Origin: a virus
Virus record (IMG/VR): IMGVR_UViG_3300037083_000054
Span: 1 to 64,000 of that record
DNA: 64,000 nucleotides
Strand: one strand, 5' to 3'
The notes beneath the pieces are model-generated. The model made no database searches, was not told the DNA's origin, and saw only the letters and a program-made list of their open reading frames with translations. Positions 1-57,165 of this stretch are shown here, piece by piece (within the stretch, counting starts at the first letter, position 1; each line of letters starts with the position of its first letter). Both the position numbers and the translations under genes were made by a program.

Positions 1-378
1 ATTGGCCAGTTCTGGATACGGTGCCCGATTGGCCAGTTCTGGAAACGATGCCCAATTGGCCAGTTCTGGAAACGATGCCCAATTGGCCAGTTCTGGAAAC
101 GGTGCCCAATTGGCCAGTTCTGGAAACGATGCCCGATTGGCCAGTTCTGGATACGATGCCCAATTGGCCAGTTCTGGATACGATGCCCAATTGGCCAGTT
201 CTGGATACGGTGCCCGATTGGCCAGTTCTGGATACGGTGCCCGATTGGCCAGTTCTGGAAACGATGCCCAATTGGCCAGTTCTGGATACGATGCCCGATT
301 GGCCAGTTCTGGATACGGTGCCCGATTGGCCAGTTCTGGAAACGATGCCCAATTGGCCAGTTCTGGATACGATGCCCG
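1..378 (+). repeat. 27-bp tandem repeat, 14 exact-length copies
   Basis: Fourteen 27-bp units run head to tail without length variation and encode the 9-residue unit LASSG(Y/N)(G/D)A(R/Q). A degenerate fifteenth unit follows at 379. Differences between units are confined to three codons, each with two states: TAC/AAC, GGT/GAT and CGA/CAA. The array is cut by the window edge, so its true copy number is unknown. There are no unique spacers, so it is a coding minisatellite and not a CRISPR array. Confidence 0.95.
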
Positions 379-583
379 ATTGGAAATGTCGGGAGAAAAT
401 AGCATTGGAGCCATCGCCGCAAAAAATGGTCGCATCAAGGTCGGCTCGAAAGGTGCATTCGCGATTTCTTTCTGGACAGACGCGGATGGATGGCGATTTT
501 TGACCGGAAAAGTTGGCGAGAATGGAATCCTTGCTGATACGTGGTATCAGGTGAAGGATGGTCAGTTGGCGAAGTGCGAATGA
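2..583 (+). CDS. DUF7666-like repeat protein, 5' end outside window
   Basis: The visible 193 residues are about 126 residues of 9-residue repeats followed by a C-terminal domain of about 65 residues (GENSIGAIAAKNG..., ending near WYQVKDGQLAKCE). That repeat plus C-terminal domain layout is known from phage and bacterial proteins carrying a DUF7666-type C-terminus; the function is unknown. The start lies upstream of the window. The TGA stop overlaps the next ATG (TGATG), so it is probably translationally coupled to the following small genes. The repeats also stay open in a second frame (21-503), which I treat as a by-product of repetition. Confidence 0.75.
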   Translation: MASSGYGARLASSGNDAQLASSGNDAQLASSGNGAQLASSGNDARLASSGYDAQLASSGYDAQLASSGYGARLASSGYGARLASSGNDAQLASSGYDARLASSGYGARLASSGNDAQLASSGYDARLEMSGENSIGAIAAKNGRIKVGSKGAFAISFWTDADGWRFLTGKVGENGILADTWYQVKDGQLAKCE

Positions 584-43890: not shown

Positions 43891-45852
43891 CTATCGTCGG
43901 CTTCCTGGAATATTGTCGCGACCGCCTCGAACCCGACGTTTTGGCTGATTGAACTTATTGCTCTCGATTTGAACGCTGCCTTTTGAGTGCTGATGGGCCA
44001 TGGTTGACGGCGTCAGACCTCGCGTGCTGGCTTCGGAGAAAAGCCCGTATCGCATGCAATCGACCGCGTCATCGTCAATTTTGACGGGATCAGCACGGAC
44101 GGCTGGCGAGTTCACGTTGGTTGTCAGTTGTTTGTGTCGATGGTAATTCACAAAGTTCCGGCAGAGATTCGGACACTTCTCGCGGACGACTTTCAGGCGA
44201 GATTCGACCGGGAGATCGGGAGCCAGTTGAAATGTCGGCTTCAGTAGATAGCGAACATATTCGATCCCCTCCTCGACATTGTCCTTTTTCGCAAGCTGGA
44301 GACTTGGAGCGTCGTATTCGCCATCAGGGAATTCTTCGCTGACCGTGTACTCGTTGACTTTGCCGAGCGTTCGAACCGCATCCAAATCATGGTCGCACCA
44401 TGTCACGCCGTAGTTTGGATTCCCTTCCGGCCACCAATGCATATCCGCGATTTCCTTCCAATGGTCAATCACGGTCTTCGAGGCATCGTTCGAATAGTAT
44501 TCGTCGTAGATCCACACGCGACCTCGTTGATCGAAGCAGAAGAATAAGCAGACGAAAGCGTGATCAATCGAGAATCCGAAGTCGATCGCTCGCACATGGA
44601 ATAGACCTGATGGCGGCTCCCATCCTTCCGGTGTGCAGTGAATGTTCGGGTTCCATTCGGGATAGACCGCTCCTTCGAAGTTGCCCCATAAGCCTTGTTC
44701 GCGGACAGGCTTCATTGAGTCGGGGACCATGCCGAAAAACTGGTGATACCATTGTTCTGAGATATGGCCCGCTTCCATTGCACAGCGGGTATTGCAGCGG
44801 AAGATGGCCGAGTCGGCGGGGATGTCGCCTTTTTCTTCCATTTCTCGCAATGGCATTGAAAGCGATGGGTCGACCGGCGTGAACTCGACAAGCTTGTTGC
44901 CGGTGAATGAATACTCGCGACAACCTCGCATGACTTCTTCGAGAATGCCCCACGGGAACTGTTCAACGAACAGGAAGCCGCCGATTGATTCGGCCTGCAT
45001 ACTCGCTCGGCCTTGCTCGTAAGACTTGAAGCAAAGCAGCCAGTTCTTGCCGGGTCGATTTGGCCATGACTTCAATGGAACGCTGTAGGGCCAATCCATG
45101 TTTGGCTTGTACCACTGGATACGTGGCCAGTCGATGTCGTTCGGATGGATGTGCCCTTTCTGATGAAGCTTTTCTTTCCAACATGCATTCATCACCATTG
45201 AATAGCTTTGGCTGATGAGCCAAAACGGCGTGTCTCGGCGTGGTGGTGGAGTCTTGTTGATAAACCGCATCATTTTCGCCAGACCGAGCGTCGTCGTCCC
45301 TGAATTGTGGTGATAGATGCCTTCCATCCAGTAGTTTTCATAGATCGGGACGTGAAAGTCCCAATAAACATCCCTACGAACAAAGCAATGAGCTTCGACG
45401 TAAGCGACTTTACCATCGGCCTGAATTAGTCTCACATCGCCATCCGCAACCACATCCCGCATCGTCATCCAGCCATATTCGGTGAAGACTCGATGATCGA
45501 GAGTGACGCAAAAAACATTTCCGTCTGAATCGCCAGAAAGCAGAAACTCGCAGAGATCTTCCGTTCCACAGGCATGCGGCTGTTCGGCTAATGCGATGAC
45601 GCGATTGCCAGTGAATTCGTCGATCGACCAGACGTGGAATGGGCCGGGGATCGAGTCTATGCGGCGAGAGACGTCCAGAATCGGATCATAGATTTCTTGC
45701 TCGGCAGCCGCGCATCCGTTGCCGCCAAGGCAGTACTGGATACCAGATAATTCAGACTCATAGAACGCCGTCTGCATATCATTTCGTTCAGGCTGATCAG
45801 GCCGAGGCTTGAAATGAAAGCATTCGAGTTCTTGAATTCTGGAGAGCGACAT
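43891..45852 (-). CDS. terminase large subunit with intein in the P-loop
   Basis: 653 residues before splicing, 516 after. Flanks join to YCLGGNG-SGTTTLGLAKM, the Walker A site of the packaging ATPase; notably the usual Lys of GK(T/S) is replaced by Thr. A deviant lysine position, as known in other terminases, may serve. The RNase H-like nuclease is visible at the C-terminus: RAIDFGFSIDHAF, WCDHDLDAV and IDDDAVDCMRYGL. It cuts and pumps phage DNA into heads. Portal and small terminase candidates are elsewhere in the window. Confidence 0.92.
   Translation of the reverse strand: MSLSRIQELECFHFKPRPDQPERNDMQTAFYESELSGIQYCLGGNGCAAAEQEIYDPILDVSRRIDSIPGPFHVWSIDEFTGNRVIALAEQPHACGTEDLCEFLLSGDSDGNVFCVTLDHRVFTEYGWMTMRDVVADGDVRLIQADGKVAYVEAHCFVRRDVYWDFHVPIYENYWMEGIYHHNSGTTTLGLAKMMRFINKTPPPRRDTPFWLISQSYSMVMNACWKEKLHQKGHIHPNDIDWPRIQWYKPNMDWPYSVPLKSWPNRPGKNWLLCFKSYEQGRASMQAESIGGFLFVEQFPWGILEEVMRGCREYSFTGNKLVEFTPVDPSLSMPLREMEEKGDIPADSAIFRCNTRCAMEAGHISEQWYHQFFGMVPDSMKPVREQGLWGNFEGAVYPEWNPNIHCTPEGWEPPSGLFHVRAIDFGFSIDHAFVCLFFCFDQRGRVWIYDEYYSNDASKTVIDHWKEIADMHWWPEGNPNYGVTWCDHDLDAVRTLGKVNEYTVSEEFPDGEYDAPSLQLAKKDNVEEGIEYVRYLLKPTFQLAPDLPVESRLKVVREKCPNLCRNFVNYHRHKQLTTNVNSPAVRADPVKIDDDAVDCMRYGLFSEASTRGLTPSTMAHQHSKGSVQIESNKFNQPKRRVRGGRDNIPGSRR
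45304..45714 (-). other. mini-intein (137 aa) in TerL
   Basis: Starts at Cys47 (CAAAEQEIYDPILDVSRRI), carries block B as VTLDHRVF (Thr117...His120) with GWMTMRDV, and ends EGIYHHN before Ser184. No homing endonuclease domain fits. +1 residue is Ser. It interrupts the P-loop between GGNG and SGTTT. Confidence 0.88.
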
Positions 45853-47713: not shown

Positions 47714-47877
47714 GACAACAACGCTTCCGCCAGAGGATCATTCGTCTCGTCAATCTCATTCATCACAGCCCAAGCCGATACGCCGAATGGCACTAGGATA
47801 AGGGAACTGCTCCCGAAGCAAGCTTTCGATGGTACGTATTTCGTGGCCGCGACATCATATCTTTCCAGCCTTCGCGT
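47710..47877 (-). pseudogene. phage gene truncated at its 5' end by element 2
   Basis: Reading on the minus strand, the frame runs RYDVAATKYVPSKACFGSSS, LILVPFGVSAWAVMNEIDE..., ending LAEALLS at 47710. The natural N-terminus is missing: upstream in frame is the terminal repeat of element 2 and then a stop. So the insertion or a deletion removed the start. Confidence 0.65.
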
Positions 47878-47974
47878 GGCTTTGCACGTTTAATCCCGAA
47901 TAAAAGTGCAGACGGACCCGAACGGCGAATTAAACGTGCATGCCAAAGGATCTGACAATTGGCGATTATCCGGA

Positions 47975-48193
47975 TTATTTCATTGAAGTTTCTGAATTTG
48001 CAACAGACGTTTTCGCTGCGGCCTTCGCGGCTTTCATGGCTTTAATCTTTTCTCGATACCAGTCAGGTATCTTGTGCGTCGTCACAGGCGGAAAGGGAAT
48101 CGTTTCTTTTGAGCAGATGCTTTCTGAGACTGGAAATTCTTCGAAAACGAGCTCCAAACTCCCATTCACCAGTTTTAATGTCCAGTGCGACAT
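47975..48193 (-). CDS. hypothetical cargo protein (72 aa), overlapping frame
   Basis: Overlaps the 3' end of the gene 48063-48467 by 131 bases in another frame. The part downstream of the overlap (PFPPVTTHKIPDWYREKIKA, Lys/Ala-rich tail) looks like real coding sequence. It could be a separate gene or the true end of the upstream gene after a frameshift. Confidence 0.4.
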   Translation of the reverse strand: MSHWTLKLVNGSLELVFEEFPVSESICSKETIPFPPVTTHKIPDWYREKIKAMKAAKAAAKTSVANSETSMK

Positions 48194-48467
48194 AATTCAT
48201 CTCTTCGGTTTCGCAGTGATCAAAATATCGGAGCAGTTCGTCTAAGTCCTTGATGGCAGCAGGTTCATATGTGCCGACAGTTGTCCATTCGTCACGCTCG
48301 GCGATGAATTGCTTTGCTGCCATCTCGCTGGAAAACAATGGAGCGGCATTTTGGATCTCTTCTGGCGAGAGAACAGCCAATATCCCCCTCCATCCCGCGA
48401 CAATATCGACAGGAATCCAAATAGGATACGTAATGTCGATATCATCGTTTTCATGGATTGATTCCAT
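48063..48467 (-). CDS. hypothetical cargo protein (134 aa)
   Basis: Start MESIHENDDIDITYPIWIPV at 48467, directly behind the structured leader 48468-48582, whose last hairpin carries the RBS GGGAG. The first 100 residues read well (AKQFIAERDEWTTVGTYEPA); the last 40 overlap the alternative frame of 47975-48193. Confidence 0.55.
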   Translation of the reverse strand: MESIHENDDIDITYPIWIPVDIVAGWRGILAVLSPEEIQNAAPLFSSEMAAKQFIAERDEWTTVGTYEPAAIKDLDELLRYFDHCETEEMNYVALDIKTGEWEFGARFRRISSLRKHLLKRNDSLSACDDAQDT

Positions 48468-48582
48468 TATGCGAACTCCCGATTGACTACGTACCGGGAG
48501 TTGCTACCATGCCATCGCCATAACCGCATGGTTCTCCCAGAGAACAAAAGAACGCCAGCAATCCCCATTGCTGGCGTTTATC
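48468..48582 (-). ncRNA. structured leader RNA, copy A
   Basis: Minus strand. Four hairpins in order: ACGCCAGCAA/TTGCTGGCGT followed by a T-run; GTTCTC/GAGAAC; CCATGC/GCATGG; ACTCCCG/CGGGAGT, the last arm holding the RBS just before ATG 48467. Copy B is at 56006-56121 with the same order, conserved loop words and compatible pair changes. Hairpin 1 could also be the terminator of the zinc-ribbon gene upstream. Confidence 0.7.
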
Positions 48583-48618
48583 ATTTTCCAAGATTCATTC
48601 TGAACTGCAATGGCAGAT

Positions 48619-49125
48619 TCAGATTGATCTCTCGGTCTCAATTTTGACTGTCGACATCGTTGCCCAGACCATCAACAAGATCCATACGATGCCGGTCCAC
48701 GCCAAACAGAAGTTCAGAATCAGGATCGGAACCAGATTCCGATGTGCTCGTAAATAGGCGATTATGGACGGCAAGAAATGCAACAAGATTAAAGCAACAA
48801 TGGCAACTGATCCAAATGCCGCGAAAAACACGGCGCGAATTTTGTCGTCGGCCAATGTCTTATTGTTCGCAAAAATCCCCACGCACATTACGACAAACAA
48901 GAGTGCAGTAAGAATCGCAGAGCCAATGACGATAATTTTCCCTTGTCCGTTCTTCGTCCAATAAACTGAAGAATGATCCGATTTCTGGATGATAATTGGT
49001 TCTTCTTTGTCGGCATCACACCTTGGACACACGGTCATTTTCGATGTGTTTGCCGTTGCCGGTATTGCGTAAACTTTACCGCACGACGGACAGGTCCATT
49101 TTTGACGTGACGCACCTGAAGACAT
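48619..49125 (-). CDS. zinc-ribbon membrane protein (168 aa)
   Basis: WTCPSCGKVYAIPATA...CPRCDAD is an N-terminal zinc ribbon; three TM helices follow (IIVIGSAILTALLFVVMCVG; FFAAFGSVAIVALILLHFL; ILILNFCLAWTGIVWILLMV). Same plan as 31988 and 54432, all next to transposons. Role unknown. Confidence 0.75.
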   Translation of the reverse strand: MSSGASRQKWTCPSCGKVYAIPATANTSKMTVCPRCDADKEEPIIIQKSDHSSVYWTKNGQGKIIVIGSAILTALLFVVMCVGIFANNKTLADDKIRAVFFAAFGSVAIVALILLHFLPSIIAYLRAHRNLVPILILNFCLAWTGIVWILLMVWATMSTVKIETERSI

Positions 49126-49150
49126 GATCTCTCTTTCGTCGTGTTGAGTG

Positions 49151-49199
49151 TTGAGCAGAAAAGACGCATCGGATGCTTGTAAGACTACCGATGCGTCTT
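49151..49199 (-). terminator. intrinsic terminator of transposase 2
   Basis: Minus strand: AAGACGCATCGG, loop, CCGATGCGTCTTTT. It lies 3' of the transposase 2 gene and 5' of the zinc-ribbon gene. Confidence 0.8.
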
Positions 49200-49220
49200 G
49201 CTGAGATTCAAGCGATGCGT

Positions 49221-50438
49221 TTACTTCGCGAATGCAGGTTCGATACCTAGTTCGTAAAACTCACTGATTAGGCAGCAGATGTTATGTGCCAAAACCTTAC
49301 ACAGAACTTCGTTTTTCATGGCGATTTCGGTCTTGCTGCGAACTGAATCTCCGAACTTGCGTTTTACCATTGAGAATGTGGATTCAATGTTACTCCGCTT
49401 GTGATACGACTGAAGAAACTCCTCACGGTACAAGCTGAAGAAATGAAATGCCTTGCCAAACAATCCACCGATGCCGCCTGTAGTTCCCGAACGAAACGTG
49501 ATGTATGGCTCGGCCCCGAGAGCATTGATGGCTCGGAAGTTCGATTCGCTCGCATACTGAGTGTCGGCACTCACTTCCTTAACGTCGAAATTCTTTGCGG
49601 TTGTCTGCATGAGTGCTGGCAGAAGTGGTGAATCATTCGCGTTGCGGTCAAGGATTTCCACAGCCGTGATGACATTCGTTTTCACCCCGCACACGGCATG
49701 CAGCTTGACCCAAGTATGCTCAGTCCTGACTTTTCCATATTTATGATCGAACCATCTAATGAACTTCGACGATGTGAAACCTGATGAATCAACCGCAAAA
49801 TCGGTTTCAACGCTTTTGAGCGGCAAACTGGATGTCTGGATCAATTGAACAAGATGTTCCGTCATTTCTTCATCTTCTAGCGCAGTGCTGATCGCATTGA
49901 AATGCGGTGTTCGTTCGATATACCCCTTGTACTTCGCATCGTCCAGATCGCACATAAATCTTCTCTGGCTGACAGTGCTGTAAACCTTGAAACAGGCCAT
50001 GAATATGCAGTCAGACATGGGAATTCGTGGGCGACCGCGTCCAGGCGTCGCTAAGGGTGCCTTGACGTTGTCGCACAGCGATCGCAATAGCGACTGAAAG
50101 TGATCTTTCTCGCTCGTCTGCGCCTGATTGTATTCCGCCCACATTTGAGGATATGTCGGACGTTTGACGGTCGTAGAAATAGTCACTTCCTCAGTCGTTG
50201 TCTCAGTGCCGTCCGCGTTCTGCTCGCGTTTGATGACATATCGGACGGCGTAAATGTGCTTGCACTCTTGACCACGTTTTTCGAAGTCCGGGCAATTGCA
50301 ATAGGGCGTTTGCTCATCTGCCACGACGGTGTATTTGCCTTCGCCTGTCTGACTGGGGACGATCCACACTTGTCCTTTTTGCACAATTCGACTTCCGGCA
50401 GCGATCGTAGCACCACGTTGTTCTCTTGCTTCGCACAT
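49221..50438 (-). CDS. SWIM-finger DDE transposase 2 (405 aa)
   Basis: Start MCEAREQRGATI at 50438; the frame is open far upstream but that part is leader and operator. SWIM finger YCNCPDFEKRGQECKHIYAV, acidic residues in FAVDSSGFTSSKF, VSADTQYAS and RSNIESTFSMVKRKFGDS. Clear homologue of transposase 1, with similar motif order and end (LCKVLAHNICCLI). Expression probably controlled by the RHH operator and the antisense RNA. Confidence 0.88.
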   Translation of the reverse strand: MCEAREQRGATIAAGSRIVQKGQVWIVPSQTGEGKYTVVADEQTPYCNCPDFEKRGQECKHIYAVRYVIKREQNADGTETTTEEVTISTTVKRPTYPQMWAEYNQAQTSEKDHFQSLLRSLCDNVKAPLATPGRGRPRIPMSDCIFMACFKVYSTVSQRRFMCDLDDAKYKGYIERTPHFNAISTALEDEEMTEHLVQLIQTSSLPLKSVETDFAVDSSGFTSSKFIRWFDHKYGKVRTEHTWVKLHAVCGVKTNVITAVEILDRNANDSPLLPALMQTTAKNFDVKEVSADTQYASESNFRAINALGAEPYITFRSGTTGGIGGLFGKAFHFFSLYREEFLQSYHKRSNIESTFSMVKRKFGDSVRSKTEIAMKNEVLCKVLAHNICCLISEFYELGIEPAFAK

Positions 50439-50443
50439 GACTT

Positions 50444-50560
50444 GCCTCTTTTTCTGTTGAGGCATTCCCGATAGAATCGCAATTGCTATGTCGCGGATTG
50501 GCGGGAACGCCAGTTTGTGATTCGCCCCGGTTTCGATTCGCAGTCGATTCCGGGTTTTCC
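50444..50560 (+). ncRNA. predicted antisense RNA over transposase 2 leader
   Basis: Hairpin GGCATTCCCG...AATC with GATTGGCGGGAACGCC (50461-50511), then a terminator hairpin CCCGG/CCGGG and TTTT (50526-50558). Same arrangement as at 30582 and 52322. Confidence 0.65.
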
Positions 50561-50574
50561 TTACGCATAGTATT

Positions 50575-50640
50575 GTACGGACATAATTATCGGAAGTCAA
50601 TAAGAAACCATTGACAAAAATAATTTTGTCCGTACACTTC
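50575..50640. promoter_or_regulatory. divergent promoters and RHH operator, element 2
   Basis: Arms GTACGGACA (50575-50583) and TGTCCGTAC (50627-50635). Plus strand: -35 TTGACA (50611-50616), 16 bases, -10 TACACT, giving a nearly leaderless RHH mRNA (ATG 50645). Minus strand: -35 TTGACT, 17 bases, -10 TACAAT for the transposase. Each -10 overlaps an arm, so one protein could shut off both. Confidence 0.7.
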
Positions 50641-50644
50641 CAGC

Positions 50645-50902
50645 ATGCACGAAAAACGACCAGGAAGACCGCCAAAGTCAGGCGTCGCATTCGGAGTTCG
50701 CATCGAGATTCGAGCGACGGACGAAGAGCGAGACCGCATCGACAAGGCGGCGAGCATTGCCGGTAAAGAGCGATCCGAGTGGATTCGTAGCACGCTGCAA
50801 TTAGCGGCGAATCAGACAATTGAAGAACATGATTCACAACCAGTGTTGAAAATGACGAAGAGATCTGTAAAATCAAAGAAGACCGGCCATGCTGGAACAT
50901 GA
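50645..50902 (+). CDS. ribbon-helix-helix regulator (85 aa)
   Basis: Basic start RPGRPPKSG, then the RHH pattern VRIEIRATDEERDRIDKAAS and SEWIRSTLQLAAN, as in CopG/MetJ-like proteins. Probably represses itself and transposase 2 through the inverted-repeat operator. No Shine-Dalgarno, consistent with leaderless translation. Similar to 52552 and 63806. Confidence 0.78.
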   Translation: MHEKRPGRPPKSGVAFGVRIEIRATDEERDRIDKAASIAGKERSEWIRSTLQLAANQTIEEHDSQPVLKMTKRSVKSKKTGHAGT

Positions 50903-51154
50903 CCGGCTTCGAGAGAAAAACGCCAATCTTCGGGATTGGCACCGATGGCATCCTGCCATCACCTGCTATCCGTCGAGGAACAGCCTGTCATTGCGGCAAA
51001 TTGCCGTCTTGTCAGATCGAACCAAAACGGAAGCAGGCCATGAAGCCATATGGCTTGCATGGCAGTCCTCCTGAAAACCGAGCGATTGGATTATCTTGGG
51101 TTCTAAGTCAAAGTACCCAATCCTCGGTCACTGAGGCACCACTATCCACAGTGG

Positions 51155-51190
51155 CCCGGATGTCGCCTCGTTTGGCATCCGGGTTATTTC
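51155..51190 (+). terminator. intrinsic terminator
   Basis: CCCGGATG / CATCCGGG with TTATTTCTT after it. It ends the RHH transcription unit. The 250 bp between 50903 and here contains no convincing gene on either strand. Confidence 0.75.
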
Positions 51191-51534
51191 TTCGCTTCCT
51201 CTCCACTCCATTTCCCGTCCGGGAGCTTTCTGAAGTTTTTGTCGTTCAGCGTGGTATTGACAGTTCCCTGCGGAATTCCTGATTTGGCGATAACGTCACG
51301 ACGCAACATCGGCCCCTCTTTAATCAAAAACTCTCTCAATTCTTGAACCCTAGTCTTTCCCGCAGTAGTGGCATTGCCTGCTGGCGTTTTATTGCCTCCG
51401 CCTGCCGGAGTTTTCTGATTCGACCGGGGCGGTTTTGAAGTAATTCGCTCAATTGCTTCTGCACCGAGCATTAATTCCTCCACTGTCGTTCCGATTGCAA
51501 TCCAGCCATTTTCTGTTTTTTGAATTGATGCCAT
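51184..51534 (-). CDS. winged-helix-like cargo protein (116 aa)
   Basis: Start at 51534 (GGGGAC upstream); an upstream in-frame ATG at 51642 would add a hydrophobic segment. The Gly/Asn-rich linker (KTPAGGGNKTPAGNATTAGK) leads to a wHTH: RVQELREFLIKEGPMLRRDV, SGIPQGTVNTTLNDKNFRKL, GKWS. DNA-binding regulator or antitoxin-like. Confidence 0.65.
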   Translation of the reverse strand: MASIQKTENGWIAIGTTVEELMLGAEAIERITSKPPRSNQKTPAGGGNKTPAGNATTAGKTRVQELREFLIKEGPMLRRDVIAKSGIPQGTVNTTLNDKNFRKLPDGKWSGEEAKK

Positions 51535-51657
51535 ACAAGTCCCCGCGATTCTGTTCCAGACGTCGATAATGACAATACTTATGAATGGTATCGACCATAA
51601 CGTAAAAAGCAATAGCGCAGGGAACGACCATAATTTGGTCATGCGTCCATATTGCCT

Positions 51658-51695
51658 GAAAACGAAAAAGGCCCGGAGATCCGCAGATCACCGAG
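51658..51695 (-). terminator. intrinsic terminator
   Basis: Minus strand AGGCTCGG...CCGGGCCTTTTTCG. Lies between the right end of element 2 and the winged-helix gene. Confidence 0.6.
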
Positions 51696-51783
51696 CCTTG
51701 ATAAGTTTGAGAAAGCCCCCGTCAGTTGATTAAAAGTGCAGAACTGCGATTATTCGTGCAAGTGCCATTAAACGTGCAAAGCC

Positions 51784-52316
51784 ACCGCACCAGTGGCAAA
51801 AGAAATCAGAGCGACTGCCCGCATGATGGGGAATCCGAGGCCCGCGACGGTGGTTTTGACTCGTGGGAATTCCAATTGGTTCTCAGCAGTATCCGGCATT
51901 GAGAGTGTCGTACCGTCAGCCAGGAACAGTTCACGGCCTCGCCAGTGCCAAGCATTGTCGGCAGTACCGTGAACGCTGCATCCGATTTCCTTCGCAAGTC
52001 GCGACATCACTTGAAGAGGGAAGCGACTGCGGGCGTCGGCATAGCTAGCGGATGACGCTGAACAGGCAGGAAGTCCATTCGCCACGCGATGAGCCAGAAT
52101 CCGGCTCACAGCTTCATTGAGCGATTTATCTTGACTGAGACACTGAGACAGCCACGCCCATAGAGTGACCAGCGGGCAAAACACTCGTTGACGATATTCG
52201 TGCCCTTCATCTTCGAGAACACCGACAACATGGTCGCGTTTGAGAAGTCGTCCAAATGGAAGCCCGTCATCATTTGCAAATGTGTCACGAACTAAGCGGA
52301 AGTCTTTTCTGCTCAT
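51784..52316 (-). pseudogene. IS4-family transposase, 3' part lost at element 2
   Basis: Start MSRKDFRLVRDTFANDDGLP at 52316. The N-terminal part of an IS4-type enzyme is intact (FCPLVTLWAWLSQCLSQDKS; LADGTTLSMPDTAENQLEFP; TVAGLGFPIMRAVALISF) with the first catalytic Asp, but the frame runs into the element 2 end after about 177 of an expected 400+ residues. Not functional. Confidence 0.88.
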
Positions 52317-52321
52317 CTGAT

Positions 52322-52440
52322 TCGCCTTTTCTTCAGGGCGAACCGTGATAGAATGCTGTTGTGATACGGGGCATTCTGGCGGATTCGCTGGTTTGAACTG
52401 GACCCGGTTTCGACGCCAATTGAAGCCGGGTTTTTCTTTT
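52322..52440 (+). ncRNA. predicted antisense RNA over the IS4 transposase leader
   Basis: Hairpin GCGAACC...AGAATGC with GCATTCTGGCGGATTCGC (52338-52388), then terminator CCCGG/CCGGG and TTTTT (52403-52436). Same plan as 30582 and 50444 although the transposase belongs to another branch. Confidence 0.62.
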
Positions 52441-52490
52441 GTCAGGTCGCCAAACCCAACGCATGAAATAATATCAATCCTCTGATTTAT

Positions 52491-52545
52491 TGTCCAGACA
52501 AAAAAACATTCGAATTGACAAATTTTTGTCTGGACGTAATATGTC
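52491..52545. promoter_or_regulatory. RHH promoter and operator
   Basis: Arms GTCCAGACA (52492-52500) and TGTCTGGAC (52527-52535) surround TTGACA (52515-52520); TAATAT (52537-52542) follows at 16 bases. The RHH ATG at 52552 would be leaderless or nearly so. Confidence 0.68.
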
Positions 52546-52551
52546 GGAATC

Positions 52552-52749
52552 ATGAAGCACAAAACTGATCCACTGAAGCGGGGTCGATCGTCGACCGGGC
52601 AAATGCCGATGAAGTATTTCAGGATTGCGGACGAAGACTGGCAACAGATCGAATCTGCGGCCAGTGCGTCCGATGAAACGACTTCTGAATACATTCGCCG
52701 AGTCCTGTTGAAAGACTCGGCCCGCATTCTCAAGAAAAAAGATGCCTAG
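52552..52749 (+). CDS. ribbon-helix-helix regulator (65 aa)
   Basis: RHH pattern MKYFRIADEDWQQIESAASA and SEYIRRVLLKDSA. Promoter and operator are directly upstream; it faces away from the IS4 transposase remnant. Probably the former regulator of that element. Confidence 0.75.
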   Translation: MKHKTDPLKRGRSSTGQMPMKYFRIADEDWQQIESAASASDETTSEYIRRVLLKDSARILKKKDA

Positions 52750-52797
52750 ACTTCACCGCCCTGGAGATTTAATCTATGCAACCGATCAGGATGCCTG

Positions 52798-52931
52798 TTA
52801 TTGCTCGGTATTGCAGACGTGACAGATATTCCCAGAACCAGTAAACATACCGCGATCCTTGCAGAGCAGACATTTCTGTCCCTTCCTTGTTTTGCTTGTT
52901 TGTGGAGTGTCAGTAGAGCGTCAAACCACAT
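52798..52931 (-). pseudogene. possible broken zinc-knuckle gene
   Basis: One minus-strand frame ends CLLCKDRGMFTGSGNICHVC..., a good two-knuckle zinc motif, but has no start; the only ATG upstream (52931, MWFDALLTLHKQAKQG) is in another frame. One frameshift would join them. Weak. Confidence 0.25.
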
Positions 52932-52965
52932 CCGAGCGAGTTGCTGGGGATAAAACGTAAGAGAC

Positions 52966-53001
52966 AGTCATCAGGCCCCAACCTGATGACTTCTTTTTTT
53001 G
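52966..53001 (+). terminator. intrinsic terminator
   Basis: AGTCATCAGG / CCTGATGACT with TCTTTTTTT. Ends the RHH transcript. Confidence 0.85.
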
Positions 53002-53127
53002 GAGGACTCCAAAAACTCAATGGACGATTTCATATACAGGACCGTTTTCAAAAGCGAAAAAGATTCTTTCAATCTCACTTATCCGCCCATTCAACCTACG
53101 CAAATCCAAAAGCAGAAAAGAGACAAG

Positions 53128-53163
53128 GCCCCGCCAAGTTATCGATACTTGACGGGGCTCATT
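53128..53163. terminator. bidirectional terminator
   Basis: GCCCCGCCAAGT / ACTTGACGGGGC long stem. On the minus strand it is downstream of the 53259-53957 gene. Confidence 0.7.
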
Positions 53164-53206
53164 GTTTCAGAGTTATTCAGATGAGCAATCGCAGTTGCCA
53201 TGTGTG

Positions 53207-53255
53207 TTCGCGCGAACACTTTCTTGCGCGCGAACACTTTGTTCGCGTTTTGTTC
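53207..53255. repeat. TTCGCG/CGCGAA cluster
   Basis: Within 50 bases: GTTCGCGCGAAC (perfect palindrome), GCGCGCGAAC, GTTCGCG and GTTCGCG. Lies between the terminator and the stop of the minus-strand gene at 53259. Possibly a binding array; nothing known matches. Confidence 0.5.
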
Positions 53256-53258
53256 GCG

Positions 53259-53957
53259 CTATGGGTTGTATCGACCGCGTGCTTTGAGCATGCGAAGGCT
53301 CGCCAGTAGTCGCTTGGCTTTAGTGTCGCTTCCTAATGTTTCTCCCGTAAATTCACGAGCGGTTTGATTTTGGCTTTTGCCGCTTCCCTTGTCAGAGTTC
53401 AATCGAATGGCGAGATCGCGAATATCAGGATTATCAGGAATTCCTTTCGGGAACATTTTGTGAGTGTTCGCGTCGATGGCGATCTTTTGTGCAGCCAACT
53501 CAATGCCAGCATTCAGAATGTCATCAATTGCTGAGGACGGAATTGGATGAAATGTATATCCATACCGATGAATGCGATGAGATTCGTAACATGCGACTGA
53601 TGACCGCACGACATGGCTGACCCAAGGTAATTTCAGAAGTTTGCGGAACAAATGCGCGAGACGTGACGTAGGATAGGAAACTATGATTTGCGAATGGATT
53701 GATCGCAGCAGACTCGCCATTGTCTGCAATGCGGGTATGTTCGCAATTGCTTCGGCAAGACTCGGCTCAGGATTTGTATTCAGAAGCCCTGAAAACAGAG
53801 ACGATTCCCCGGCAGTAGAATCCGCATCCAATTCTCGTTCGTCGTCCACGGTAAACAACCATTCTGCCATTTCTGGTGGATTGCCTTGTGGATGAAAATA
53901 CTGCCTTAGGTGAACGGCCAATTGATGCAACTCTCCGACCAGAATATCTGCCGTCAT
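53259..53957 (-). CDS. hypothetical protein (232 aa)
   Basis: Helical with Leu/Ile-rich stretches (ALQTMASLLRSIHSQIIVSY; LFRKLLKLPWVSHVV). No family. Genes beside it (RHH, zinc-ribbon TM) suggest cargo of the degraded third element. Confidence 0.55.
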   Translation of the reverse strand: MTADILVGELHQLAVHLRQYFHPQGNPPEMAEWLFTVDDERELDADSTAGESSLFSGLLNTNPEPSLAEAIANIPALQTMASLLRSIHSQIIVSYPTSRLAHLFRKLLKLPWVSHVVRSSVACYESHRIHRYGYTFHPIPSSAIDDILNAGIELAAQKIAIDANTHKMFPKGIPDNPDIRDLAIRLNSDKGSGKSQNQTAREFTGETLGSDTKAKRLLASLRMLKARGRYNP

Positions 53958-54431
53958 TGCGCTGCCCGATCATGCCTCAACCTTGATAATAAGCCATATG
54001 GAAAATCTTCATTATCAATATTGTGATTTGAATTAGACTGCGAAAGCAAACGATCGTCTCTCTGTCGAAAGCATTGTTTCCCAAGATTGAGAATATCACA
54101 TTGTGATTTATCTCGGTCTCGTCGTCATCGCCTTGAATCCTGCTCCGCCGAAGCGGTAGTCTGCTGTCGATTGAGAGAGTTCGTTTAGTGATTAGGAGTT
54201 TTGACGTGTGGCCGATTTGGTCACTAATGACATTGTGAATTGACGCGTGTGCGTCTCTGCTTCGCCGAAAATCCGCCAACTTGGACCGCCTATGGTTCTT
54301 GAAATGGAAGCAGTGCTTCGACCGCGCTCCCGCAAGGGAGCGTCGGCGTGGTGCTGTTCCGTTTCATCCCTTGGCGGGGATTCGGCGAGCGGTCCTGTCG
54401 ACGCTCTTTTTCGTTTTCGGGGGCCAGATCA
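53958..54431. other. 474-bp gene-poor region
   Basis: No convincing gene. An AT-rich part (53985-54115) has repeated TTGTGAT words, including ATCACATTGTGAT near 54097. Near the end is a GC hairpin, CGCTCCC GCAA GGGAGCG (54325-54342). Probably holds promoters for the divergent genes 53957 and 54432. Confidence 0.5.
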
Positions 54432-55952
54432 ATGCAACGATTTGAATGGACCTGTCCAGGATGCCAGAAGAAATTCAGTGTTCCCACACTTGAAGGGTTG
54501 ACCCTGTGTCCTGCCTGTCAGCCGTTCAAGCTTGATACGTCTCAGTCGCCACCGAGCATTAAGCGTGTTCAGAAAAAACAAACCACTTCCCTGCTTGCTT
54601 TGACTTCCTGTGTGATTTTAATCCCTGTCATTATTTGGCAATGGCATCACCTGATTTCATCAGGGAAACTCGCTGAGATTGCTGCGATTTTCCCCGCAGA
54701 AGACATCGGGAAATCTCCGGTTCGAAAATGGCTGAAAGACAATCTCGATGATGGGTCTTGGGAAGAAGTGAAATGGTGGCCAACGATTCCCACTCAAACA
54801 CTCTATAACGCCAATGCTCTGCGACTGCTGGAACATATCGAGGAACAAAAGAGTCGATTCGAGAGAGGTCTTCCAACAAAGCATGACGCTCTTGCCCATT
54901 GCAAAGCTCAATTAGACGCATTTCAAGTAGCTGGAGTTCGTCATTTTTGTGCCATCAAATTTCGAACAAAAAGCCCCTTTGGAGGAATGGTTCTTCAGAC
55001 GCGAACATTTGAAATTCGTGAAAGAGAGGCCATCCCACTGAAAGCCGATCGGATTGTGGAGCAGGATATTCGCGATGCGGAAGTCATCACTCATGATGTT
55101 TGGGATTTTCTCAATAACTCTGAATACGACCCTTCGCCGCAGCCGTTCCCCTTGAAAATCACTGAACGGATTCGCACGGCCCTTGTCTGGAAGAAGCCGA
55201 AAAAGAAAGAAGCAAAAGAGGAAAATCCGGAGCCAATCGTTCAGCAGGAGCGAAACATTCGCCCGCGCCCGATGCAAGTCCAAATGCCAGTTGAACAAAT
55301 TGAAATTCCTGAACGGAAGCCACATCAAATCGTCAAAAACGACCCGCCAATGGAGAAGCCACCGGAACTACAAAGTGGTGTTCCGAAGAAGGTTCGCGAA
55401 TATTTCGAACGAAGCAATGAATTGAAAAACAAACAAAAAGAATTGGAGTCTCAGAGCGACAAACTGGAGTCCGCAATCAAAGGGGCAGCACCCGCGAGCA
55501 AAAATATTTTGCGTGACAAGCTGACGACAGTCAATAAATCATTAGTGGAACTCAAAAAGTTGAAGTTCATACCATTCATGCCGTCGTCGCCGGAATTCGG
55601 CGATATTGGTTCGTTCAGGGCAATTGAAGTGCGGGCAATCTTTAACGATGAAACCGCCATTATCGCATGGTCCCCGAACGGATATTCACCAAATGGCGAA
55701 TTATTGAATCCGATCTATCACTTGGTTGTCACACCAATTGACGCGAAGCAGGCGAAAGTTGGTAAATCGGCTGTGAATACCGATCTCTTCCGAATCACGG
55801 CAAGTCGCGAAGTTCCTCTGCCTATTATGAATGATGACATGGTTAAAGCCGTCTATGATGCGCCTCTCATGTTCGTGGCCGAACCGGTCAAGAAATACGA
55901 GATCGAACAATATCGCGAACAGTACCAAAAAGAAAACACTAAAAAGAAATAG
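54432..55952 (+). CDS. zinc-ribbon, single-TM, coiled-coil protein (506 aa)
   Basis: ATG 54432 with GGGGG upstream (an upstream ATG/GTG frame also exists). WTCPGCQKKFSVPTLEGLTL..CPAC zinc ribbon, one TM helix (LLALTSCVILIPVIIWQWH), a long soluble part, a Pro/Lys-rich segment and a coiled coil (SNELKNKQKELESQSDKLES). Followed by leader copy B. Role unknown. Confidence 0.68.
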   Translation: MQRFEWTCPGCQKKFSVPTLEGLTLCPACQPFKLDTSQSPPSIKRVQKKQTTSLLALTSCVILIPVIIWQWHHLISSGKLAEIAAIFPAEDIGKSPVRKWLKDNLDDGSWEEVKWWPTIPTQTLYNANALRLLEHIEEQKSRFERGLPTKHDALAHCKAQLDAFQVAGVRHFCAIKFRTKSPFGGMVLQTRTFEIREREAIPLKADRIVEQDIRDAEVITHDVWDFLNNSEYDPSPQPFPLKITERIRTALVWKKPKKKEAKEENPEPIVQQERNIRPRPMQVQMPVEQIEIPERKPHQIVKNDPPMEKPPELQSGVPKKVREYFERSNELKNKQKELESQSDKLESAIKGAAPASKNILRDKLTTVNKSLVELKKLKFIPFMPSSPEFGDIGSFRAIEVRAIFNDETAIIAWSPNGYSPNGELLNPIYHLVVTPIDAKQAKVGKSAVNTDLFRITASREVPLPIMNDDMVKAVYDAPLMFVAEPVKKYEIEQYREQYQKENTKKK

Positions 55953-56005
55953 CACGTTTGTGATATTGGCAAGAGATTGCAAGTTTTCCGAAATGATTCA
56001 CAATG

Positions 56006-56121
56006 CAAAACGCCAGCAACGGAAATTGCTGGCGTTGTTTGTTCTCGTTGGGAGAACCGTGCCGAAATGGTGTCAGCATGGTAACGACTCCCGATTTGTT
56101 TTCAAGATGGGAGTCGCATCA
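56006..56121 (+). ncRNA. structured leader RNA, copy B
   Basis: ACGCCAGCAA/TTGCTGGCGT with T-run, GTTCTC/GAGAAC, CCGTGC/GCATGG (one G-U pair instead of C-G/A-U), ACTCCCG...GGGAGT just upstream of ATG 56122. Same order and spacing as copy A; words such as GGGAGAACC, TGC, ATGG and GCATGGTA are shared. It follows a zinc-ribbon TM gene in both copies. Confidence 0.7.
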
Positions 56122-56475
56122 ATGTTTCTGGTCATCGACAAAAACGATCACTTCATATTCCTTCAAGCCGACCCGAGCATGGAGGAGAATTTTCATCTGA
56201 CTGTCGTGAAAGATGTAGAAATTAGGTGGGATATGAAACCATACGGAAATGGATTGTGGCCAGACTCTACCGAACGATCAGTTCGAATGGGAGAAACCGG
56301 ACAGAATCCCAACAATCGAAAGCAATATCGTTATTTCAAGTGTCGCGATGATTTAATTGCGGCTGGATATGAAATGGTTGATAAAACTCACGCGATCAAG
56401 GAACCTCCACGTGAAGCGGCTTCGTGGTCGGAATATCTGAAACAATGCGAACAGCGGGGTGAGTCCACCACATAA
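56122..56475 (+). CDS. hypothetical protein behind leader B (117 aa)
   Basis: Start MFLVIDKNDHFIFLQADPSM at 56122. Beta-rich, then basic (RKQYRYFKCRDDLIAAGYEM). Not related by eye to the gene behind leader A, so the leader, not the gene, is the conserved unit. Confidence 0.6.
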   Translation: MFLVIDKNDHFIFLQADPSMEENFHLTVVKDVEIRWDMKPYGNGLWPDSTERSVRMGETGQNPNNRKQYRYFKCRDDLIAAGYEMVDKTHAIKEPPREAASWSEYLKQCEQRGESTT

Positions 56476-56650
56476 TTGTGACTTCAGTTCCGTCTCGCTC
56501 AAAAACGAACCCCCAATCGGCAATTTTTTTTGGTGACCCGTGAGCATTAATAGCGGTAAGTTGCACGCGGTCGTCTGCGAACAGGTCGACGAGACTCTGA
56601 ATCAGTTCCATAACTTTCGGCTTATTCCGATTGACGCCTGTTTCACCCAT
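56396..56650 (-). CDS. hypothetical protein (84 aa)
   Basis: Minus strand, convergent with the previous gene (80-base overlap). Contains KVMELIQSLVDLFADDRVQL and DWGFVFERDGTEVTIMWW. Coding character is fair; overlap lowers confidence. Confidence 0.45.
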   Translation of the reverse strand: MGETGVNRNKPKVMELIQSLVDLFADDRVQLTAINAHGSPKKIADWGFVFERDGTEVTIMWWTHPAVRIVSDIPTTKPLHVEVP

Positions 56651-56711
56651 GACATTTCATTCCTTTTTCAAATCGTATATATCATAAAATCGCCATTTTT
56701 CAGGCCCAATT

Positions 56712-56730
56712 CCTTATCCTAGTGCCATTC
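56712..56730. repeat. 19-bp repeat shared with 47785-47803
   Basis: CCTTATCCTAGTGCCATTC here; the reverse complement is at 47785-47803 inside the truncated phage gene. It overlaps the 3' end of the tRNA-Leu-like gene, so it may be an old att or recombination site. Confidence 0.45.
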
Positions 56731-56806
56731 TAGATTCGAACTACCATGAATCTTTCGATCCGCAGAATTTTAAGTTCTGTGCGTTTGCCAGTTTCGCCAC
56801 GCATTC
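56723..56806 (-). tRNA. tRNA-Leu(UAA)-like, acceptor stem degenerate
   Basis: D-arm TGGCGAAACTGGCAAACGC, anticodon stem-loop CAGAA CTTAAAA TTCTG (anticodon TAA) and variable arm GGATC GAAA GATTC are excellent for tRNA-Leu. The T-arm is weak (two mismatches), and the 5' GAATGCG has no CGCATTC partner at the 3' end. So either a broken tRNA or one with a replaced 3' end. Confidence 0.6.
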
Positions 56807-56810
56807 AAAA

Positions 56811-56879
56811 TGGATGATGTAGGATTCGAACCCACGCCGCAGGATTTACATCCCCGTTCTACCGCTGAACTAATCATCC
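56811..56879 (-). tRNA. short tRNA (possible anticodon GTA)
   Basis: Acceptor GGATGAT/ATCATCC with A discriminator, D-arm GTTC...GAAC, and T-arm GTGGG TTCGAAT CCTAC are all good. The anticodon arm is one base short; the best fold gives loop ATGTAAA (anticodon GTA). 69 nt, class I size. Confidence 0.65.
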
Positions 56880-56974
56880 GTCGGCAGTTCTCTCAATCAT
56901 CATCTCGAAGGCAAATGACAACGCCAGATACACACTGCCAATCTCTCTGGCTCTCTCACGGTTTGTTCAATTCA

Positions 56975-57131
56975 GTTGTCACGGCAGGATTCGAACCTGC
57001 ATCACGCTTAGTCCACGGTCCGCATACGCGGTTACGCTGCTGCTCTCGCTGTGATTTAGGCAGGTCCGCCTTGGATTGAGCATCACCAAAGTTATCCCGC
57101 CGCGTCTCTACCAGTTCCGCCACATGACAAC
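56975..57131 (-). tRNA. tRNA-like gene with about 70-nt insertion
   Basis: GTTGTCATG at the 5' end pairs over 9 bp with CGTGACAAC at the 3' end, a Leu/Ser-type D-arm follows (TGGCGGAACTGGTAGAG) and a good T-arm precedes the end (GCAGG TTCGAAT CCTGC). Total length is 157 nt, so an intron-like insertion of about 70 nt or a fusion of two tRNAs is present. The anticodon cannot be assigned. Confidence 0.5.
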
Positions 57132-57165
57132 GGATGCCGTTTTCCATCGACTCATTTTCCGGCTG

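What the first reader, a model, noticed from the sequence alone, without database searches (positions are those of the whole stretch)
48468..56121. Two copies of a structured leader RNA of about 115 nt
48468-48582 (minus) and 56006-56121 (plus) share four hairpins in the same order, conserved loop words (GGGAGAACC-TGC-ATGG-GCATGGTA) and pair-preserving differences. The last hairpin encloses the RBS of the next gene. Downstream genes are unrelated; the upstream gene is in both cases a zinc-ribbon membrane protein. This looks like a new cis-regulatory RNA, or an attenuator carried by these elements.
Basis: seen in the sequence. Interest (0 to 1): 0.82.

Follow-up and report, generated by a model that had tools for sequence, protein, structure and literature searches.

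The report
Transposon-borne switch-like leader RNA
The two look-alike stretches are copies of an undescribed regulatory RNA that sits in front of passenger genes of jumping elements in planctomycete bacteria and viruses, and whose co-varying bases suggest it can fold in two exclusive ways that hide or free the start of the gene.

Summary
Both copies carry four hairpins in the same order, fold far better than shuffled sequence and lie directly before a start codon. Rfam has no match. A covariance model and scans found 12 further copies: two more in this 122.8-kb virus, one in a second virus, nine in five genomes of one Schlesneria-like genus (Planctomycetaceae); one copy is split by a transposon.

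(2) 'Downstream genes unrelated' is half right: 7 of 14 belong to one diverged small-protein family. (3) The hairpin-2 loop (nGGGAG) can pair with the 5' arm of hairpin 4 (CUCCCn); this pairing covaries and excludes hairpin 4, which hides the Shine-Dalgarno GGGAG. Most copies also carry a sigma-70-like promoter on the opposite strand reading back over hairpins 3-1; all fit a weaker conserved promoter-like site before hairpin 1.

Best model: a cargo-gene leader whose pseudoknot-like pairing frees the ribosome site, opposed by a roughly 75-nt antisense RNA, as in IncI-alpha repZ control. The pairings are supported by comparison; the antisense RNA and the function are inferred.

The parts
48583..48610 (-). 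Copy A: promoter-like site before H1 (TTGCAG-N16-GAAAAT)
   Evidence: Pattern TT[GC]nnn-N16/17-[GCT]A[AC]AAT found at -56 to -73 from H2 in all 14 elements; pattern drawn up after seeing the first copies
48551..48578 (-). Copy A: H1 hairpin AACGCCAGCAAT/ATTGCTGGCGTT; terminator-like on both strands
48531..48545 (-). Copy A: H2 (GTTCTC-TGG-GAGAAC); its CTGGGAG (48540-48534) can pair with CTCCCGG at 48500-48494
48508..48530 (-). Copy A: H3 (CATGC...GCATG)
   Evidence: covariation
48474..48502 (-). Copy A: H4 (AACTCCCG...CGGGAGTT) enclosing the Shine-Dalgarno GGGAG at 48480-48476
48483..48510 (+). Copy A: opposite-strand promoter TTGACT-N16-TACCAT
   Evidence: only promoter hit in 48400-48700; same place in most copies
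48063..48467 (-). Gene after copy A, 134 aa; tentative member of the small-protein family FPxW...LFTEELxAER
   Evidence: (no Pfam); no BLAST match below 0.1 to the others
48619..49125 (-). Gene before copy A: zinc-ribbon plus Imm_superinfect (PF14373) membrane protein
47878..51783 (-). Transposon type Tn2 carrying copy A (transposase 49221-50951, SWIM + DDE_Tnp_1); ends read outward ATTAAACGTGCAAAGCC
55977..56004 (+). Copy B: promoter-like site before H1 (TTGCAA-N16-CACAAT)
56009..56036 (+). Copy B: H1 hairpin, terminator-like
56041..56057 (+). Copy B: H2 (GTTCTC-GTTGG-GAGAAC); its GTTGGGAG (56047-56054) can pair with CTCCCGAT at 56088-56095
56058..56080 (+). Copy B: H3 (CGTGC...GCATG)
56086..56115 (+). 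Copy B: H4 (GACTCCCG...TGGGAGTC) enclosing the Shine-Dalgarno GGGAG at 56109-56113
56078..56105 (-). Copy B: opposite-strand promoter TTGAAA-N16-TACCAT
   Evidence: only promoter hit in 55930-56230
56122..56475 (+). Gene after copy B, 117 aa, no Pfam family
47786..56729 (.). Inverted ends AATGGCACTAGGATAAGG of transposon type Tn1 around copy B (transposase fragment 51768-52733); Tn2 with copy A lies inside. No target duplication found here, so the outer unit may be rearranged

Best explanation
The element is a leader RNA of transposon cargo genes that can adopt two exclusive folds. When the H2 loop (nGGGAG) pairs with CUCCCn across H3, a pseudoknot-like fold, the Shine-Dalgarno GGGAG is free and the gene is translated. 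When that pairing is prevented, CUCCC pairs with the Shine-Dalgarno as H4 and translation is off. A short antisense RNA of about 75 nt, started inside the element at TTGAC-N16-TACCAT and ending near H1, is complementary to H2 and most likely blocks the pseudoknot-like pairing, so that each cargo gene is kept low. Supported by comparison: the homologous family, H3, the alternative pairing, part of H4, and placement in transposon cargo. Inferred: transcription starts, existence of the antisense RNA, and the direction of control.
For: Homologues not used to train the model: 1.4e-17, 1.9e-13, 2.2e-9 and 1.1e-10 in a second virus. H3: 98.3% of cells paired, 3 pairs with two-sided changes, 0/500 shuffles reach the covariation score. 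Alternative pairing: 4 pairs with two-sided changes, covariation 0.259 against 0.164, 0/500 shuffles, every slid register worse; true partners beat permuted ones, 3/20,000. H4: 89.6% paired, covariation reached by 7/500 shuffles. Opposite-strand promoter found by an unguided scan in both window copies and at the same place in nearly all others. Copy 512 has largely lost H4 but keeps the alternative pairing with changed bases.
Against: Only 12 distinct, related rows; arms were anchored by eye, which favours the named structure. A single 9-of-12 promoter match is common in shuffles (7-16%). The terminator tail of the presumed antisense RNA is poor in several copies. Segment permutation does not support H4 on its own (1,624/20,000). 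Copy 511 shows no alternative pairing by inspection. No expression data exist. H1, if a working terminator, would also stop a transcript from the upstream promoter-like site.
Confidence: 0.48

Rival explanations
1. A leader RNA with the same two folds but no antisense RNA: the switch responds to a small molecule, to a protein (for example the small downstream protein) or simply to the order of folding, and the opposite-strand promoter is fortuitous.
For: The pairing evidence does not need an antisense RNA; half of the downstream genes encode one protein family, which would allow self-control; single promoter matches are common in shuffles.
Against: It leaves the conserved unpaired TCAA in the H4 loop and GTA after H3 unexplained, which are exactly the hexamers of the opposite promoter; the other half of the downstream genes are unrelated, which argues against self-control by the product.
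Confidence: 0.27
2. An ordinary intergenic module: H1 is the bidirectional terminator between two cargo genes, H4 and H3 are DNA inverted repeats (operators) around a promoter, and the whole recurs because transposon cargo is copied.
For: H1 scores as a terminator; the H4 repeat flanks the -35 hexamer of the opposite promoter; copies travel with transposons.
Against: Covariation of the H2 loop with the H4 5' arm, across H3, is not expected of DNA operators; H3 keeps pairing through changes of both bases.
Confidence: 0.15
3. The element is mainly a small-RNA gene read from the opposite strand (promoter over H4/H3, loop CUCCC, end at H1) that acts in trans on Shine-Dalgarno sequences; the gene next to it is a bystander.
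For: Opposite-strand promoter; complementary H2 carries an anti-Shine-Dalgarno-like loop.
Against: H3 covariation involves bases that overlap the -10 hexamer of that promoter and so would not be in such an RNA; match of the antisense loop to the Shine-Dalgarno arm of its own copy is no better than permuted; every element lies directly before a start codon or close to one.
Confidence: 0.1

Closest known systems
[quoted passage not shown]
   Same: Leader hairpin whose loop pairs downstream as a pseudoknot that turns translation on; short antisense RNA against that hairpin; Shine-Dalgarno otherwise hidden (details of repZ partly from memory)
   Different: No shared sequence, no Rep gene, no leader peptide seen; several copies per genome before different genes, in transposon cargo; antisense RNA here only predicted
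tisB leader with IstR-1 and similar type I toxin leaders (PMC7708055)
   Same: Structured leader with a pseudoknot, hidden ribosome site, an antisense RNA
   Different: No toxin peptide downstream; the tisB pseudoknot is described as a ribosome/S1 docking structure, not as competing directly with the hairpin over the Shine-Dalgarno
SAS/ESAS repeats of cluster K mycobacteriophages (PMC3203893, abstract seen)
   Same: Repeated start-associated sequence with inverted repeats before several genes of one phage
   Different: Short motifs of other sequence; not known to form a switch or to travel with transposons (from memory; paper not read)
RNA-OUT/RNA-IN of IS10 and other transposon antisense RNAs
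   Same: Antisense RNA encoded by a transposon and acting at a ribosome-binding site
   Different: Those control the transposase; here the cargo gene. From memory, not tested

Membership tests
Any Rfam 15 family | Score above the family's gathering threshold | tested here: not met
   Only a tRNA in the whole window; sub-threshold matches are chance-level
IncI-alpha/I-complex rep leader | Loop of a leader hairpin pairs with a downstream arm (pseudoknot) that competes with hiding of the Shine-Dalgarno | tested here: met
   Covariation on 12 copies; not shown by experiment
IncI-alpha/I-complex rep leader | Short antisense RNA transcribed across the target hairpin | tested here: inconclusive
   Promoter and terminator-like sites in the right places; no transcript data
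IncI-alpha/I-complex rep leader | Controls a plasmid replication initiator gene | tested here: not met
   Downstream genes have no Pfam family and no Rep match
Type I toxin-antitoxin leader | Downstream gene is a short hydrophobic peptide toxin | tested here: not met
   Most products are 103-263 aa; the three shortest (21, 36, 63 aa) are not hydrophobic, and the 21-aa one follows a transposon-split copy
Transcription attenuator | A terminator with a U-tract formed in competition with another fold | tested here: not met
   H1 does not overlap the switching arms, and its sense T-tail is absent in 512 and weak in E; H4 has no T-tail
Riboswitch | Binds a ligand directly | not testable with these tools
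   No ligand-linked gene function is apparent
Transposon cargo | Lies between transposon ends together with a transposase | tested here: met
   A, B, E, G between recognised ends; F before an end; 71, 233, 513, G535 directly downstream of transposases or a remnant. C, D, 511, 512 not assigned

The most novel reading that the evidence does not exclude
The antisense RNAs act in trans between copies: transposon cargo in one cell or one virus is cross-silenced according to the few loop bases around GGG, much as I-complex plasmids sort into incompatibility groups by their RNAI loop. The four copies in this virus carry different loops (TCTGGGAG, GTTGGGAG, CTCGGGAT, CTCGGGAA), so loop divergence would set which cargo genes are silenced when elements meet.
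Probability: 0.12. Interest if true: 0.82.

Novelty: new variant of a known kind. Interest (0 to 1): 0.62.

Why it matters
It adds a regulatory RNA family with no Rfam entry, found on transposon cargo inside viruses and in a planctomycete genus. If the switch is real, passenger genes of transposons travel with a ready-made translational control that works before unrelated genes, which would help explain how such cargo is tolerated after each jump. The base pairs to break and restore are named, so it is directly testable.

Tried and rejected
Relatives by the virus's portal protein: none in IMG/VR, one distant hit among named phages. First viral pattern scan gave one chance match at an unrelated terminator; another found nothing. 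Five of six hits of the genome scan look like chance; only Schlesneria is real. HDV-like ribozyme, attC-like site and tRNA-like readings were considered from memory and dropped because the alignment of copies did not fit them. Phylum-wide search: 1 of 392 genomes; the order search covered 170 genomes, the same number as the family search, and added no genome. Plasmid and phage collections: no DNA match. AlphaFold of one protein of the small downstream family without an alignment gave pLDDT 41 and was not used. PADLOC found no defence family in the cargo tested, only BREX genes beside copy 513. Matches in G515:C3 and G516:C965 were rejected as chance-level. At first the opposite strand was considered the only functional one; the H3 covariation and the alternative pairing turned this round.

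Full report
Observation. The two copies are real and correctly placed. A 71-nt stretch they share is the top-ranked inverted repeat of the window, and a 39-nt stretch over H1 is fourth. Each folds about 17-18 kcal/mol below its shuffles, with z of -4.9 and -5.1. Rfam has no family for them. The window is part of a 122,834-base virus record, with a Mu-type portal protein in this stretch.

Family. A genome-wide pattern scan gave one true homologue outside the virus, in an uncultured Schlesneria (Planctomycetaceae), with several copies on one contig. Model R1, built from six copies, then found copies it was not trained on: G515:C233 (1.4e-17), G515:C71 (1.9e-13), G513:C220 (2.2e-9), weaker but anatomically sound ones in G512 and G511, and one in a second virus, IMGVR_UViG_3300050120_000121 (1.1e-10). 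In all there are 14 elements: four in this virus (A, B, E, F), one in the second virus (G535), and nine in five genomes. One of the nine (H) is split by a transposon with a 12-bp target duplication, CCATACCGATAC. Only 1 of 392 Planctomycetota genomes and 5 of 170 of the family carry it, all five in one genus of 15 genomes. Plasmid and named-phage collections have no match.

Anatomy, 5' to 3' on the gene strand: a promoter-like site TTGnnn-N16/17-[GC]A[AC]AAT present in the elements (TTCAGA-N16-TACAAT in D); H1, a strong hairpin that changes sequence but keeps pairing (missing in D, degenerate in 511); a mostly pyrimidine-rich linker; H2 with base GUUC/GAAC; H3; H4 holding the Shine-Dalgarno; start codon. 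In 511 and 512 the likely start and ribosome site lie a little further on.

Pairing evidence. On 12 distinct hand-aligned copies (D, G and the rejoined H among them; 233 left out as a near-duplicate of G; 511 left out), H2, H3 and H4 together have 93.9% of cells paired and five pairs with changes on both sides; no shuffle reaches the covariation score. H3 alone is the cleanest: 98.3% paired, GC to AU in two rows, CG to GC in the second virus, CG to UA in one. The H2 loop (nnnGGGAG) and the 5' arm of H4 (CUCCCnnn) can pair across H3. This pairing has four pairs with two-sided changes, covariation 0.259 against 0.164 in shuffles (0/500), and every slid register is worse. Permuting whole segments between copies gives 3 of 20,000 as good as the true partners; for the H4 arms it is 1,624 of 20,000, though the outer pair of H4 does covary. 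Copy 512 has nearly lost H4 but keeps the alternative pairing with changed bases. Since CUCCC cannot pair both ways, the two states exclude each other, and their duplex energies are of similar size (-9.4 to -16.0 against -5.4 to -16.9 kcal/mol). Caveats: the rows are related, the arms were anchored by eye, and the number of copies is small.

Opposite strand. The only promoter hit around each window copy reads backwards over the element: TTGACT-N16-TACCAT at 48483-48510 (+) and TTGAAA-N16-TACCAT at 56105-56078 (-). It recurs at the same place in most copies, and explains the conserved unpaired TCAA and GTA of the sense strand. A transcript from it would cover part of H3, and H2 and H1, about 75 nt, and would be complementary to the H2 loop. 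A single 9/12 match is not rare in shuffles (7-16%), so this remains an inference. The H3 covariation points to the sense strand, because its 3' arm overlaps the -10 hexamer of the opposite promoter and would not be in the antisense RNA.

Setting. Two transposon types carry the copies. Tn2-type (SWIM + DDE_Tnp_1 transposase; ends reading outward ATTAAACGTGCAAAGCC or close variants): A lies within 47878-51783, E within 62774-68132, F just before an end at 115541-115557, and copies 71 and G535 follow such transposases. Tn1-type (DDE_Tnp_1 transposase; ends AATGGCACTAGGATAAGG): B lies within 47786-56729, G and 233 directly follow an intact transposase, and 513 follows a transposase remnant (91.6% identical over 95 aa) next to BREX genes. 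Copies C, D, 511 and 512 have no such assignment. Seven of the 14 downstream genes (A tentatively) are members of one diverged small-protein family that is rare in the host family and has no Pfam name.

Mechanism. The working model is a translational switch: pseudoknot-like pairing on, Shine-Dalgarno hairpin off, with an antisense RNA tipping the balance to off. The order of synthesis would favour the on-state first, because the Shine-Dalgarno arm is made last (inference). It works like the repZ leader of IncI-alpha plasmids (Asano and Mizobuchi 1998, listed in PMC10724649) and resembles the tisB leader (PMC7708055), but it is a member of neither: no shared sequence known, no Rep, no toxin peptide. 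A literature search for the combination of transposon cargo, antisense RNA, pseudoknot, leader and phage returned only a general review.

Noticed in passing
L049 8683-14804 (G513:C220): One leader copy lies beside BREX defence genes (PglZ, BrxL) with a Tn1 transposase remnant between them.
   Followed up: partly
window 56700-57150, minus strand: tRNA genes in the virus: tRNA-Tyr at 56811-56879 and, by eye, a tRNA-Leu(UAA)-like gene whose 3' end abuts the Tn1 end at 56729; a further one may lie near 57000.
   Followed up: no
window 1-486: At least 12 head-to-tail copies of a 27-bp unit, running off the start of the window.
   Followed up: no
window 12502, 27820, 36933, 43845, 60947: Near-identical 20-25-nt palindromes AAATAAGC(C/G)GCTTATTTA, in or near gene boundaries; possible operators or terminators of the virus.
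   Followed up: no
G001:C88 13831-18108 (L018): Tn1 transposon inserted into a leader copy with a 12-bp target duplication, which shows the element being hit by the same transposon type that carries it.
   Followed up: yes
window 48063-48467; L004 3593-3937; L019 2309-2620; L046 8366-8698; L047 14659-14970; L050 9644-10015; L067 9152-9514: An undescribed small-protein family (FPxW ... LFTEELxAER) found in these transposons and rarely in Planctomycetaceae genomes.
   Followed up: partly
window 43891-45852, minus strand: A 653-aa protein that looks like a large terminase; by eye a stretch resembling an intein-like insert (FCVTLDHRVFTEYGWMTMRDV ... YHHNSG) lies in its N-terminal third. Pfam gave no match.
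   Followed up: no
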